Below, piece by piece: positions 36,167-45,158 of a DNA stretch of 55,109 bases. Where the stretch lies: NCBI RefSeq assembly GCF_030682515.1, contig NZ_JAUXOD010000007.1, forward strand, positions 1 to 55,109, given 5' to 3'. A program made the translations under genes and the position numbers. The first letter of the stretch is position 1; each line of letters opens with the position of its first letter. This DNA is from Hoeflea sp. (GTDB lineage: Bacteria; Pseudomonadota; Alphaproteobacteria; Rhizobiales; Rhizobiaceae). A model generated the notes under the pieces. The model saw only the letters and a program-made list of their open reading frames with translations. It had not been told where the DNA came from and did not search any database.

Positions 36167-37594
36167 TCAGATAGGAACGGGACCAACGCAAAGGCCCGCG
36201 TCAGCGGCGCGCTGCGCCGGGACCGGCCAGCCGGTGGCCCCGAGCGACACGCCCGCCTGGCCATGCAGCCGGGCTGCGAGGGCCGCCACCTGGCCGTCAT
36301 GGCCGGCCTTCGCGATCAGCGTGACGCTTGCGGGACGGCCGTCGCCGCGCCGGCCCGTCGGCACGGCGATGGCGCACAGATCCATCAGGTTGACGAAGTT
36401 GGTGTAGGTGCCGATCCGGCTGTTGGGTCCGACCGGGTCGTCTTCGAGATCCTTGAGCGTGACGAAGGTGGGAATCGTCGGCACGCAGAGCAGGTCAACA
36501 CCGGCCAGCAGCGGCTCGGCGCGGCGCCTGAGATCGGCCATCTTGTAGAAGTCGCGGAAGGCATCGGCGGCAGAGAAGTTCTCCGCCTTGGCGATGATGG
36601 CCCTGGTGACGGGGTGGAGGACGTCCAGGGTCTGTTTGAGCAGATCCTCGATCACCGTGTAGCGCTCGGCCACCCAGGCGCCCTCGTAGAGCATCCGGGC
36701 GATGTCATGGAAAGGCGAGAAATCGAGCTCGACGATCGTGCCGCCCTGCCCTTCGACGGCGTGCAAGGCCGCCTCGAAGGAGGCCTGCTGCACTCCGTCG
36801 CCGAAGAACCTGATGCTGTCCCTGGACGGAACGCCGACCCTGAAGGCTTGCGGCACCGGGCCGAGCGGAGCCACCGGGAACCGCCGCGCATAGGCGTCGG
36901 CCGCGTCGAAGGCTGAGGCCTCCGCAAAGACCGCATAGGCGTCGTCCACCGACAGCGCGAAGATCGAGATCGTGTCGAGCGTCCGGCAGGCGGGCACCAC
37001 GCCCGTGGCCGACAGCGTGCCCAGCGTCGGCTTGAGCCCGACGATGTTGTTGAGAGCGGCGGGCACCCGGCCGGACCCCGCGGTGTCGGTGCCCAGGCCG
37101 AAGCTCACCAGGCCGTGGCTCACCGCCACCGCCGAGCCGGAGCTCGACCCGCCTGGCACGATCGCCGGATCGAGCGCGTTCCTGGGCACCGGATAGGGCG
37201 TGCGCACGCCCACCAGCCCGGTGGCGAACTGGTCGAGATTGGTCTTGCCGATCAACAGCGCGCCGGCCTTTCTCAAGCGGGCGACGACGAAGGCGTCCGC
37301 CTCCGGGGTGTAGGCGAAGGCCGGACAGGCGGCCGTCGTGGGCTTGCCCGCAGCATCGATGTTGTCCTTGACGACAAAGGGAATGCCCCACAGCGGCTTT
37401 TCAACGAGATCGAATTCCCCCAGCGCCTCGGCAGCCGCGGTGACCTCGGCCTGACTGAACAGCTCGATGAAGATGCCGGGGTCATCGACGGCTGCGATGC
37501 GGCGGAAGCACTCAGCGACGATGTCGGCTGAACGCGCCCCCGCGCCATAGGCGGTGTGGAGCGCGGCGATGGTGAACGGCAGGTCTGCAAGCAC
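36167..37594 (-). CDS. atzF: Allophanate hydrolase (AtzF-type), amidase domain only
   Basis: A 475-residue amidase-signature enzyme. The catalytic triad is K76 (GIPFVVKDN), cis-Ser S150 (PGGSSSGSAVAV) and nucleophile S174 (GTDTAGSGRVP); spacing of 74 and 24 residues equals that of AtzF (K91/S165/S189). ALNNIVGLKPT, VVPACRTLDTISIFAL and SRIGTYTNFVNLMDLCAIAVP are specific to allophanate hydrolases and separate it from AtzE or GatA. It converts allophanate to ammonia and CO2. Typical AtzF is about 600 residues with a C-terminal domain of some 120-130; that domain is absent, and no remnant fits in the 77 bp before the tRNA. It is the last gene of the operon, 4 bp after the cupin. Confidence 0.92.
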   Translation of the reverse strand: MLADLPFTIAALHTAYGAGARSADIVAECFRRIAAVDDPGIFIELFSQAEVTAAAEALGEFDLVEKPLWGIPFVVKDNIDAAGKPTTAACPAFAYTPEADAFVVARLRKAGALLIGKTNLDQFATGLVGVRTPYPVPRNALDPAIVPGGSSSGSAVAVSHGLVSFGLGTDTAGSGRVPAALNNIVGLKPTLGTLSATGVVPACRTLDTISIFALSVDDAYAVFAEASAFDAADAYARRFPVAPLGPVPQAFRVGVPSRDSIRFFGDGVQQASFEAALHAVEGQGGTIVELDFSPFHDIARMLYEGAWVAERYTVIEDLLKQTLDVLHPVTRAIIAKAENFSAADAFRDFYKMADLRRRAEPLLAGVDLLCVPTIPTFVTLKDLEDDPVGPNSRIGTYTNFVNLMDLCAIAVPTGRRGDGRPASVTLIAKAGHDGQVAALAARLHGQAGVSLGATGWPVPAQRAADAGLCVGPVPI

Positions 37595-37598
37595 GAAA

Positions 37599-37949
37599 CT
37601 ATCCCTGGTCTTCTTCTTCCAAAATCAGCACGGGCCGGTTCCACTGGATCAGCACCACGCAACCGGTCTCCGACCAGACCGAATGCTCGCTGCCCTCCGG
37701 GTTGGCCATCATGGCACCCGCTGGGTAGGCGCCGTTGTCGTCGATCTGCGTGCCCTCCAGCACGAGGATGGTCTCCAGTCCCCGATGGCGATGCCGGGGC
37801 ACGCGCGCGCCGGGCTCGTATCTGAGCAGCGCGATCGCCGGTTCGCCCTTGAGGATGTGATGGATGGTCACGCCCTTTCGGAACGGCTCGAAATCTGCCT
37901 CCTCCCATCCGCCGGTGAGGAGATCGCGAAACACGATGGGCCGTGTCAT
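37599..37949 (-). CDS. Small cupin-domain protein in the biuret operon
   Basis: A 116-residue single-domain cupin resembling the ChrR cupin. Motif 1 ([20 protein letters not shown]) supplies metal ligands H53, H55 and E59. Motif 2 (PEGSEHSVW) supplies H89. A metal site therefore looks intact. Start and stop overlap or abut both neighbours (ATGA with the upstream hydrolase; 4 bp to atzF), so it is made together with them. Its role is unknown; a metal-dependent hydrolase, an isomerase or a sensor of a pathway intermediate are all possible. Confidence 0.85.
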
Positions 37950-38608
37950 GCGATGGACCCGATCAGATCATCCGAGGTGGCCGCCCATCCGACAATGCCG
38001 CCCTGGGCCACGATCATGTCGATGGCCGCCTGCTTGAACTGAGGAAAGTAACTCTCGGTGGCGTCGGTGATCAACAGGCATTCGTAGCCGCGGTCATTGG
38101 CCTCGCGCATCGTGGTCTGGACACAGACTTCCGTGGTCACGCCGGCAAAGATCAGCTGGGTGATGCCGCGGCTCATGAGCTGCTGGCCGAGATCGGTGGC
38201 GTAGAATGCCCCCTTGCCCGGCTTGTCGATGACGATCTCGCCCGGCCATGGCGCGAGTTCGTCGACGATGGCGGCGCCGGGCTCGCCGGCGATCAGGATG
38301 CGCCCCATCGGGCCCAGATCGCCGATGCGCAGGCCGGGATTGCCGCGCTCGCGCTTGGCGGGCGGGCAGTCGGACAGGTCCGGCCTGTGGCACTCGCGGG
38401 TGTGAACGACCGTCAGGCCCGCCGCGCGGCATGCATCCAGCAGCCTGCGCACGATGGGCACGATCGCCTTGCAGGCGGAAACATCGTTGCCGAGCGTCTC
38501 GCCGAAGCCGCCGGGCTCGACGAAATCGCGCTGCATGTCGATGATCACCAGGGCGGCGCTGGCGGGCACGAGCCGGAACGGGAACGGGGACGCCTTGATC
38601 TCCACCAT
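37946..38608 (-). CDS. Isochorismatase-like cysteine hydrolase, candidate triuret hydrolase (BiuH paralogue)
   Basis: A 220-residue cysteine hydrolase with intact D24 (VIIDMQRDF), K129 (DKPGKGAF) and C162 ([19 protein letters not shown]). It is clearly a paralogue of the BiuH encoded 1.5 kb upstream and keeps the equivalent glutamine (Q202, AQGG). Differences cluster in the substrate lid: the BiuH stretch [14 protein letters not shown] is [17 protein letters not shown] here, and the N-terminal WPYNG is missing. Triuret hydrolase (TrtA) is a known relative of BiuH found in similar clusters, so triuret is the leading guess. A second biuret- or ureide-type amidase is possible. The ATG overlaps the ATPase stop as TGATG. 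Confidence 0.8.
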
Positions 38609-44043: not shown

Positions 44044-44080
44044 GTGCCTCTCCTGTGCTCCAAAACGAGGAAAACCGATG

Positions 44081-44194
44081 TGCTCATCATGCTGTGAGCA
44101 ACGACACGCGGCCTTCATGGCGGCCACGATGCACCACTGGCACTGAGAATGTCTTCTGCTATATTCGCAGCAAGGTGCTGCAATTTTTGCAGCA
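44081..44194. promoter_or_regulatory. Divergent control region of the biuret operon with LysR-type palindromes
   Basis: Half-sites GCAGCA (44167-44172), TGCTGC (44176-44181) and GCAGCA (44189-44194) form two overlapping dyads. One is the 19-bp palindrome TGCTGCAATTTTTGCAGCA (44176-44194); the other is GCAGCA-AGG-TGCTGC. The cluster lies 17-45 bp upstream of the LysR start, fitting autoregulation. A further repeat TGCTCA-N8-TGAGCA (44081-44100) lies 38 bp upstream of the binding-protein start. The layout is what a LysR regulator acting on a divergent operon needs. Confidence 0.62.
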
Positions 44195-44210
44195 GTCGGG
44201 GGCGTGCGAG

Positions 44211-45158
44211 ATGAGGCATCTGACCACATTCGAATATGTCGATGCGGTGGCGCGCATCGGCTCGATCCGGGGCGCGGCGGAGGTGCTTTCCATCACCTCG
44301 ACCGCGCTCAACCGGCGGATCCTGGCGCTGGAGGACGAGCTGGGCGTGCAGATCTTCGAGCGCCTGCCGCGCGGCGTCAGGCTCTCGAGCGCGGGCGAAC
44401 TGCTGATCCACCACATCCGCACGCAGATGGTCGACATGGACCGGGTCAAGTCGCAGATCGCCGACCTGTCGGGCGTGCGCCGCGGCAATGTGTCGATCGC
44501 CTGCAGCCAGGCGCTGCTGCCCTATTTCCTGCCCGAGCAAATCACCGACTACCGCAGGCGGCACCCGGGCGTCCGCTTTGGCGTCTATCTCAGGGACCGC
44601 GCGGCGGCGGAGAAGGCCATCGCCGATCTCGAGGCGGACCTGGCGCTGGTGTTCGAACCGGTCAGGATGGCCGAGTTCCAGACCATCCATGCCGTGCCGC
44701 AGCAGATCCACGCGGTGATGACCGAGAGCCATCCGCTCGCCGGCCACGAGACCCTGCGGCTCAAGGAATGCCTGCTCTATCCGGTAGCTATGCCGACAAG
44801 GTCCTACGGCGTGCGCTACCTGATCGAACGCGCGCTGGTGGGGGCCAACATGTCGTTCGAGCCGGTGGTGGAATCGGACAGTTTCGAGTTCCTGCGCAAC
44901 CATGCCGCGGCCGAGGGCATCATCTCGTTCCAGATCCCCATCGGCCTGCCGCCGAACGGCGTCATCCCGGGCGTGATCACGCGGCCGGTGGACAGCCGCG
45001 ATGTTCCGGCGGGCCTGATCTATCTGGGACAATTGCGCGGCCGCAGCCTGCCGGTCGCCACCGCCCGCTTCGTCGACCAGATCGTCCGGGTGATGGAACA
45101 GCGCTACCCGCGCGACGGGCTGCTGCCCGCGCGCGGGTGGACCGGCGGGACAATGTGA
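44211..45158 (+). CDS. LysR-family transcriptional regulator, probable regulator of the biuret operon
   Basis: A 315-residue LysR protein. The winged helix-turn-helix is in residues 1-60 (ARIGSIRGAAEVLSITSTAL..RRILALEDELGVQIFERL). The effector domain starts near residue 90 (GNVSIACSQALLPYFLP). The ATG at 44211 gives the conserved MRHLTTFEYVDAV start; an open frame reaching back to 44055 is rejected. The divergent position and the palindromes upstream make it the likely activator or repressor of the transport and hydrolase genes, much as AtzR controls the cyanuric acid operon. The inducer is unknown. Confidence 0.92.
   Translation: MRHLTTFEYVDAVARIGSIRGAAEVLSITSTALNRRILALEDELGVQIFERLPRGVRLSSAGELLIHHIRTQMVDMDRVKSQIADLSGVRRGNVSIACSQALLPYFLPEQITDYRRRHPGVRFGVYLRDRAAAEKAIADLEADLALVFEPVRMAEFQTIHAVPQQIHAVMTESHPLAGHETLRLKECLLYPVAMPTRSYGVRYLIERALVGANMSFEPVVESDSFEFLRNHAAAEGIISFQIPIGLPPNGVIPGVITRPVDSRDVPAGLIYLGQLRGRSLPVATARFVDQIVRVMEQRYPRDGLLPARGWTGGTM

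What the first reader, a model, noticed from the sequence alone, without database searches (positions are those of the whole stretch)
36167..45158. A compact operon for import and full breakdown of biuret and possibly triuret
Eight genes on one strand overlap or lie within 41 bp: BMP-type binding protein, two permeases, BiuH, double ATPase, a second BiuH-like cysteine hydrolase, a cupin and an allophanate hydrolase, with a divergent LysR gene. BiuH (D28/K134/C167/Q207) and AtzF (K76/S150/S174) keep every catalytic residue. Their reactions chain directly: biuret to allophanate to ammonia and CO2. The second cysteine hydrolase would extend the chain to triuret if it is TrtA-like. No cyanuric acid hydrolase is present, so the pathway seems to start at linear urea polymers. 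Placing the ATPase between the two hydrolases argues that the transporter serves this pathway.
Basis: partly seen in the sequence, partly recalled or inferred. Interest (0 to 1): 0.72.

Follow-up and report, generated by a model that had tools for sequence, protein, structure and literature searches.

The report
Triuret and biuret nitrogen-scavenging operon
A bacterium related to Hoeflea carries a compact set of genes that should import triuret and biuret and break them down to ammonia; the pathway is already published, but a small conserved cupin protein in it may be an unrecognised enzyme for the carboxybiuret step.

Summary
In detail: eight minus-strand genes (BMP, two permeases, BiuH, double ATPase, second cysteine hydrolase, cupin, AtzF), overlapping or at most 41 bp apart, with a divergent LysR gene. 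The second hydrolase is TrtA by sequence: 66% identical to the crystallised Herbaspirillum enzyme, 14 of 14 checked positions kept. Pathway and BMP-type transporter linkage are published, and the shared genes keep their order in Rhizobium 3841, source of the characterised BiuH. (1) AtzF is cut to its amidase domain (475 aa; 602 in two sister genomes); a 467-residue construct is fully active in print. (2) The cupin lies directly behind TrtA in 68 of 116 TrtA+BiuH loci, never with the AtzH-like protein found in 31; 3 of 45 cupin-bearing TrtA genomes searched have an AtzH-like gene anywhere, against 25 of 27 cupin-less ones. I propose that the cupin is a metal-dependent carboxybiuret decarboxylase standing in for TrtB (about 45%). 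The pattern is strongly lineage-clustered, so it is a lead, not a proof. Core: new member of a known kind.

The parts
42919..44043 (-). BMP/PnrA-type periplasmic binding protein with Tat-type signal
   Evidence: Pfam PF02608 and PF10518; nearest solved relative AtzT 6pi5; pocket residue E165 of AtzT is Q here
41759..42877 (-). ABC permease 1
   Evidence: PF02653
40829..41755 (-). ABC permease 2
   Evidence: PF02653
40137..40817 (-). BiuH, biuret hydrolase
   Evidence: NF050097 424 bits, cut-off 370; 179 of 221 identical to R. leguminosarum BiuH, catalytic residues kept
38608..40140 (-). double ATP-binding protein of the ABC transporter
   Evidence: PF00005 twice
37946..38608 (-). TrtA, triuret hydrolase
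   Evidence: best solved match TrtA 6xix; 139 of 211 identical; 14 of 14 checked TrtA positions kept
37599..37949 (-). small cupin with a complete 3-His/1-Glu site (H53, H55, E59, H89); proposed carboxybiuret decarboxylase
   Evidence: PF12973; the four residues in 69 of 69 homologues from TrtA loci; model pLDDT 94.4; distribution
36167..37594 (-). AtzF, allophanate hydrolase, amidase domain only (475 aa)
   Evidence: TIGR02713 600 bits, cut-off 511, model residues 2-429 of 563; same span as the 4cp8 chain; 602 aa in sister genomes
44211..45158 (+). divergent LysR-type regulator
   Evidence: PF00126 and PF03466; start codon
44176..44194 (.). perfect inverted repeat TGCTGCAATTTTTGCAGCA between the divergent genes; possible LysR operator
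   Evidence: read; one site in the window, none in 100 shuffles

Best explanation
It is a triuret/biuret nitrogen-scavenging operon, probably under the divergent LysR regulator. A BMP-type ABC importer takes up biuret and probably triuret. TrtA deaminates triuret to carboxybiuret. Carboxybiuret loses CO2 to give biuret, either by itself or, as proposed here, helped by the cupin. BiuH deaminates biuret to allophanate. AtzF, here only its amidase domain, deaminates allophanate, and the product falls to CO2 and ammonia. Shown by sequence: family membership and catalytic residues of TrtA, BiuH and AtzF. Published for homologues: the reactions of TrtA, BiuH and AtzF. Inferred: the transporter's ligand, LysR control, the cupin's role.
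For: NCBIfam BiuH and AtzF above curated cut-offs. Nearest solved structures: BiuH 6azo, TrtA 6xix, AtzF amidase domain 4cp8, AtzT 6pi5. The six positions by which PMC7948467 tells TrtA from BiuH (F35, N41, A134, E160, Y187, I205) are all TrtA-type in the second hydrolase; in the first, the five that my script aligned properly (35, 41, 134, 160, 187) are BiuH-type. Same order of the shared genes in Rhizobium johnstonii 3841, Sulfitobacter and Mesorhizobium plasmids, with formamidase and AtzD genes added in some and AtzF placed elsewhere or not seen in two. Of 118 TrtA+BiuH loci 117 have the ATPase, 113 also BMP. AtzF cut to 467 residues was as active as full length (PMC3944691, passages).
Against: No enzyme or uptake assay. 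The binding protein is kin to purine binders and shares H and D at two pocket positions with purine-bound 3s99 and with a paralogue in the same window. The AtzF truncation is absent from both sister genomes and could mark decay of the operon.
Confidence: 0.87

Rival explanations
1. The cupin is a second, unrelated carboxybiuret decarboxylase that replaces the AtzH-like (probably TrtB) protein of other triuret operons. This is an added claim to the best explanation, scored alone.
For: Directly downstream of TrtA in 68 of 68 TrtA+BiuH loci that hold it; never with AtzH-like in 116 loci, 18 expected if independent; absent from 9 of 9 BiuH loci without TrtA, one of which is only 59% to BiuH; 12 of 13 close homologues (48% or more, own genome included) in 385 alphaproteobacterial genomes lie in TrtA operons (with 45, 53). 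AtzH-like anywhere in the genome: 3 of 45 cupin-bearing against 25 of 27 cupin-less TrtA genomes. Metal residues in 69 of 69.
Against: The trait is clustered: 5 changes on the best (quick) TrtA tree, only 1 forced by well-supported branches. AtzH-like genes are common in some genomes whose BiuH locus lacks TrtA (6 of 8), though two of these (G186, G283) have them beside another, TrtA/BiuH-like gene, and rare in others (1 of 13 TrtA-less genomes of the genus). Two cupin-less TrtA genomes (G428, G558) have no AtzH-like gene. The cupin also goes with AtzF: AtzF in 54 of 68 loci with cupin, 18 of 50 without. I recall no cupin known to act on carboxybiuret.
Confidence: 0.45
2. The cupin does another job: it works on another intermediate, or senses or stabilises one, and its avoidance of AtzH is only lineage history.
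For: Few independent switches on the tree; best solved relatives by sequence are ChrR anti-sigma factors; cupin folds serve many chemistries; association with AtzF in the locus.
Against: Within one genus the two states swap: 3 of 3 cupin-bearing TrtA genomes lack AtzH-like, 2 of 2 cupin-less ones have it in the operon. The cupin does not follow formamidase (36 of 68 with, 22 of 50 without) and is not seen in BiuH loci without TrtA.
Confidence: 0.45
3. The transporter imports purines or nucleosides, and triuret arises inside the cell from purine oxidation.
For: BMP family; nearest solved relative AtzT binds guanine at about 110 nM (PMC6834077, passages); two of three changed pocket residues also occur in purine-bound 3s99.
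Against: Of 118 TrtA+BiuH loci 113 keep both BMP and ATPase; the glutamate that binds purine in AtzT (E165) is glutamine in 81 of 90 binding proteins of TrtA loci, while the window's second BMP transporter keeps E. None of the eight genes is of a purine-degrading family.
Confidence: 0.15
4. The operon is decaying: the AtzF truncation kills the last step.
For: Both sister genomes have 602 aa; homology to them ends inside the gene at 36223 or 36193, and 77 bp beyond the gene lies tRNA-Lys, which is about 40 kb away in sister genome G014.
Against: Amidase domain complete; AtzF467 is as active as full length (PMC3944691); two other short forms end at about the same point (L136 466 aa, L141 486 aa; the DNA beyond them was not examined); the other seven genes have intact reading frames.
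Confidence: 0.12

Closest known systems
TrtA-BiuH-AtzF triuret/biuret operons of Herbaspirillum sp. BH-1 and Rhizobium leguminosarum 3841 (PMC7948467; parts 1-3 of 6 and passages read)
   Same: Same three enzymes and order of reactions; R. johnstonii 3841 pRL10 also has the same BMP transporter and cupin
   Different: The 3841 locus also has AtzD and a formamidase-annotated gene, and I found no AtzF in the 24.7-kb stretch, although the paper says its operon contains AtzF; the window lacks AtzD and formamidase and ends with AtzF, here one domain
Triuret gene clusters of nitrifiers with bmpA-nupABC (PMC12625717; passages read)
   Same: trtA, biuH, atzF and a BMP-type ABC transporter side by side
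   Different: the ammonia-oxidiser cluster has trtB, the comammox cluster lacks it; the word cupin does not occur in the main text
AtzDGEHF and AtzT of Pseudomonas sp. ADP (PMC6219798, PMC6834077; passages read)
   Same: AtzF homologue; binding protein kin to AtzT
   Different: the window's operon has no AtzD, AtzE or AtzH; BiuH replaces AtzEG

Membership tests
TrtA triuret hydrolase | catalytic D24, K129, C162 and ligands E72, K132, Q202 | tested here: met
TrtA triuret hydrolase | TrtA rather than BiuH consensus at F35, N41, A134, E160, Y187, I205 | tested here: met
   6 of 6; positions from PMC7948467
TrtA triuret hydrolase | hydrolysis of triuret and not biuret | not testable with these tools
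   needs enzyme assay
BiuH biuret hydrolase | score above the curated equivalog cut-off of NF050097 | tested here: met
   40137-40817: 424 against 370 bits; the TrtA gene scores 265 and is not included
BiuH biuret hydrolase | D36, F41, K142, K145, C175, Q215 of the R. leguminosarum enzyme | tested here: met
AtzF allophanate hydrolase | amidase domain with Lys-Ser-Ser triad, above TIGR02713 cut-off | tested here: met
   600 against 511 bits; K76, S150, S174
AtzF allophanate hydrolase | C-terminal domain | tested here: not met
   model covered only to residue 429 of 563; gene ends at 36167; the domain is dispensable for amidase activity in the Pseudomonas enzyme
Cyanuric acid pathway (AtzD type) | cyanuric acid hydrolase gene | tested here: not met
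   0 matches at E 1e-50 in the window's genome
Carboxybiuret decarboxylase TrtB | homology to TrtB, taken to be AtzH-like PF11533 | tested here: not met
   the cupin is PF12973; no AtzH-like match in genome G000. That TrtB is AtzH-like is my inference from a Herbaspirillum-type locus (L168), not read in any paper
Carboxybiuret decarboxylase by function | speeds carboxybiuret to biuret | not testable with these tools
   needs assay
ChrR anti-sigma factor | N-terminal sigma-binding zinc domain (recalled) and NCBIfam cut-off | tested here: not met
   43 against 124.5 bits; only model residues 125-194 of 216 are matched by this 116-aa protein

The most novel reading that the evidence does not exclude
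The cupin is a new, metal-dependent class of carboxybiuret decarboxylase, unrelated to the NTF2-fold AtzH/TrtB-like proteins it replaces, and is the decarboxylation enzyme of a large share of alphaproteobacterial triuret operons, including that of Rhizobium 3841.
Probability: 0.45. Interest if true: 0.55.

Novelty: new member of a known kind. Interest (0 to 1): 0.4.

Why it matters
The operon should give a bacterium four nitrogens per triuret, a fertiliser impurity and urate oxidation product (PMC7948467). For the pathway itself nothing new is needed. [quoted passage not shown] A conserved gene directly behind TrtA, with a full metal site, that avoids the AtzH-like protein is a concrete candidate for that gap in Rhizobiales and Rhodobacterales, and a simple assay can decide it.

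Tried and rejected
Second hydrolase as RutB: rejected; RutB model 115 bits against cut-off 378 and best solved match TrtA. Guanylurea hydrolase GuuH was not compared directly. Cupin as the published TrtB: rejected as far as I can test, since 0 of 40 fetched Burkholderiales TrtA loci, among them a Herbaspirillum-type one with TrtA 92% identical, hold it. Cupin tied to AtzD: AtzD occurs in 13 of 118 TrtA+BiuH loci, and the 11 AtzD-like contexts fetched without TrtA nearby (L151-L161) show no cupin. A third enzyme in operons with neither gene: in 11 loci looked at I recognised no decarboxylase, but in five (L017, L025, L119, L124, L126) the same pair of genes follows TrtA, a metallo-beta-lactamase-fold protein and a methyltransferase-like one (tested in L119 and L126); it was not pursued. 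Viral contigs: no relative of TrtA. H and D at AtzT 218/220 as a ureide signature: rejected, because purine-bound 3s99 and the window's paralogue have them too. Independent-pairs test on the tree: under 6 informative pairs, no power. Fold matches of the cupin model are many (ChrR, dioxygenases, Mn hydroxynitrile lyase) and do not choose a function.

The cupin-less genomes were picked among loci with neither gene. Of 58 places I fetched 40 regions; of 52 places. Absence of the cupin is genome-wide for the class sample but only locus-wide for G001, G011 and the genomes. Four duplicate rows were dropped, and removes duplicates by sequence; 2 TrtA+BiuH loci with under 2 kb downstream were set aside. 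G263, listed, is counted once in 25 of 27. One TrtA row under 190 aa was left out of the tree. Completeness of the genomes is not told.
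Full report
What is there. Eight genes on the minus strand between 36167 and 44043 run BMP, permease, permease, BiuH, ATPase, TrtA, cupin, AtzF, with gaps of 41, 3 and 11 bp, overlaps of 4, 1 and 4 bp and a last gap of 4 bp. A LysR gene starts at 44211 on the plus strand; between it and BMP lies one perfect inverted repeat, 44176-44194. Pfam gives the expected family for every gene. 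The genome has 4.67 Mb and is 98.9% complete; the closest named TrtA is in a Hoeflea MAG (92%).

The two cysteine hydrolases. 40137-40817 passes the curated BiuH cut-off, 424 against 370 bits, and is identical to R. leguminosarum BiuH at 179 of 221 residues, with D, F, K, K, D, C and Q at the published active positions. 37946-38608 scores 265 bits, below that cut-off. Its best solved relative is Herbaspirillum TrtA (6xix), 139 of 211 identical without a gap, and 14 of 14 checked positions agree, among them the six by which TrtA differs from BiuH: F35, N41, A134, E160, Y187, I205 (positions from PMC7948467, parts 1-3 of 6 read). In the window's BiuH the aligned counterparts of positions 35, 41, 134, 160 and 187 are Y, Y, S, D and T; my script misaligned position 205 there, so I make no claim on it. 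I therefore read the second enzyme as TrtA. Its activity is not tested.

AtzF. The catalytic K76, S150 and S174 are present and the TIGR02713 cut-off is passed, but the protein stops at the end of the amidase domain. The two sister genomes that carry the same operon have 602 aa. DNA similarity to them ends inside the gene, at 36223 and 36193; tRNA-Lys lies 77 bp beyond the gene. In sister genome G014 the matching tRNA region ends at 168104 of contig 30 while AtzF ends near 208828, so some 40 kb lie between. A deletion or rearrangement next to the tRNA probably cut the gene. The remaining protein matches the chain of 4cp8, and AtzF467, the first 467 residues of the Pseudomonas enzyme, was as active on biuret as the whole protein, though dimeric (PMC3944691, passages). 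So the step is probably intact. Among 77 AtzF open frames that do not touch a locus end, six are under 560 aa, the window's included; two of them (L028, L046) end in sequence unlike AtzF, as after a frameshift, two (L136, L141) end near the same point as the window's, and L205 was not looked at.

The transporter. Of 118 TrtA+BiuH loci 117 have the ATPase and 113 also the binding protein; the linkage is in print for nitrifiers (PMC12625717, passages). The binding protein's nearest solved relative is AtzT (6pi5), which binds guanine at about 110 nM and also 2-hydroxyatrazine (PMC6834077, passages). Of AtzT's purine contacts, S97, F98 and W194 are kept; E165 is Q in 81 of 90 proteins of TrtA loci and in the window, N218 is H in 88, N220 is D in 89. 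H and D also occur in purine-bound 3s99 and in a paralogous transporter at 8888-13654 of this window, which keeps E165. Only E165Q is thus distinctive. The ligand remains open; linkage is the main argument for biuret and triuret.

The cupin. It is a single-domain protein with H53, H55, E59 and H89, all four invariant in 69 of 69 homologues from TrtA loci, predicted with mean pLDDT 94.4. PMC7948467 says that carboxybiuret, the TrtA product, loses CO2 by itself with a half-life near 20 min and that a decarboxylase gene trtB co-occurs with TrtA. In a genome whose TrtA is 92% identical to the Herbaspirillum enzyme the gene behind TrtA is related to the AtzH-like (PF11533) protein I used as query (L168). 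I take it for TrtB; no paper I read states TrtB's family, and the paper that should (Aukema 2020) is not held.

Counts. Of 116 deduplicated TrtA+BiuH loci with at least 2 kb downstream, 68 hold the cupin, 31 an AtzH-like gene, 17 neither, none both. The cupin lies directly behind TrtA in 68 of 68; the AtzH-like gene in 9 of 31, within 3 kb downstream in 21 of 31. None of 9 BiuH loci without TrtA has the cupin (two of the nine are from one genome, and one, L141, is only 59% to BiuH). In 385 alphaproteobacterial genomes 13 hold a cupin at least 48% identical, the window's own included; 12 lie in TrtA operons, one (G393) elsewhere. Searching whole genomes for AtzH-like proteins: cupin-bearing TrtA genomes 1 of 11 (class sample without the own genome), 0 of 3 (genus with the own genome), 2 of 31 (named loci), in all 3 of 45. 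Cupin-less TrtA genomes 11 of 11, 2 of 2, 12 of 14 (without G263, already counted), in all 25 of 27. Fisher p is 7e-14 if all were independent, which they are not; by families of the class sample 1 of 7 against 6 of 6, p 0.005.

Against it. On a TrtA tree of 112 rows the cupin needs 5 changes on the best tree and only 1 that strong branches force. AtzH-like genes occur in 6 of 8 genomes whose BiuH locus lacks TrtA, though in two of these they sit beside another gene of the TrtA/BiuH family (G186, G283). The best replicate is within the window's genus: three TrtA genomes with cupin and no AtzH-like, two with AtzH-like in the operon and no cupin, against 1 of 13 TrtA-less genomes; p 0.02 for 2 of 2 against 1 of 16. 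Two cupin-less TrtA genomes, G428 and G558, have no AtzH-like gene. The cupin also goes with AtzF in the locus, 54 of 68 against 18 of 50, but not with formamidase, 36 of 68 against 22 of 50. Optional use would fit a step that also runs unaided.

Known or new. TrtA, BiuH, AtzF, their operon and its BMP-type transporter are published. The operon with the cupin stands in R. johnstonii 3841. No paper in the held library contains both triuret and cupin, or biuret, ABC transporter and cupin; supplements were not searched. The window adds a member, with a one-domain AtzF, and a testable proposal for the cupin.

Noticed in passing
window 8888-13654, minus strand: A second BMP-type ABC transporter (binding protein, two permeases, double ATPase) beside quinone reductase and phosphatidylcholine synthase genes; its pocket keeps the purine-binding glutamate, so it may be a purine importer.
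   Followed up: partly
window 36014-36223: The truncated AtzF ends 77 bp from tRNA-Lys; in sister genome G014 about 40 kb separate them, and in six other genomes of the genus (G001, G002, G007, G010, G011, G017) tRNA-Lys and the gene beyond LysR are 111-137 kb apart. A deletion or rearrangement at this tRNA is likely.
   Followed up: partly
window 44176-44194: Perfect inverted repeat TGCTGCAATTTTTGCAGCA between the divergent LysR and BMP genes, a single site in the window.
   Followed up: no
58 of 118 TrtA+BiuH loci, e.g. L005 7665-8681: A gene annotated formamidase is present in half of the TrtA+BiuH loci, usually between permease and BiuH; absent here; its role in ureide breakdown is unexplained.
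   Followed up: no
L188 and L190 (genomes G428, G558): Two TrtA-like genes in one locus (70-71% and 63% identity), no cupin in the locus and no AtzH-like gene in the genome; the second copy may have another substrate.
   Followed up: no
L017, L025, L119, L124, L126: In operons with neither cupin nor AtzH-like gene, the same pair follows TrtA: a metallo-beta-lactamase-fold protein and a methyltransferase-like protein.
   Followed up: partly
L027, L047, L064 and other Burkholderiales loci: Extra genes, by eye another ABC binding protein and ATPase, are inserted between BiuH and the usual ATPase.
   Followed up: no
L144, L145, L150, L207: TrtA-like genes of 57-62% identity without BiuH in the locus but with AtzE and AtzH-like genes, suggesting a route from triuret through carboxybiuret and dicarboxyurea.
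   Followed up: no
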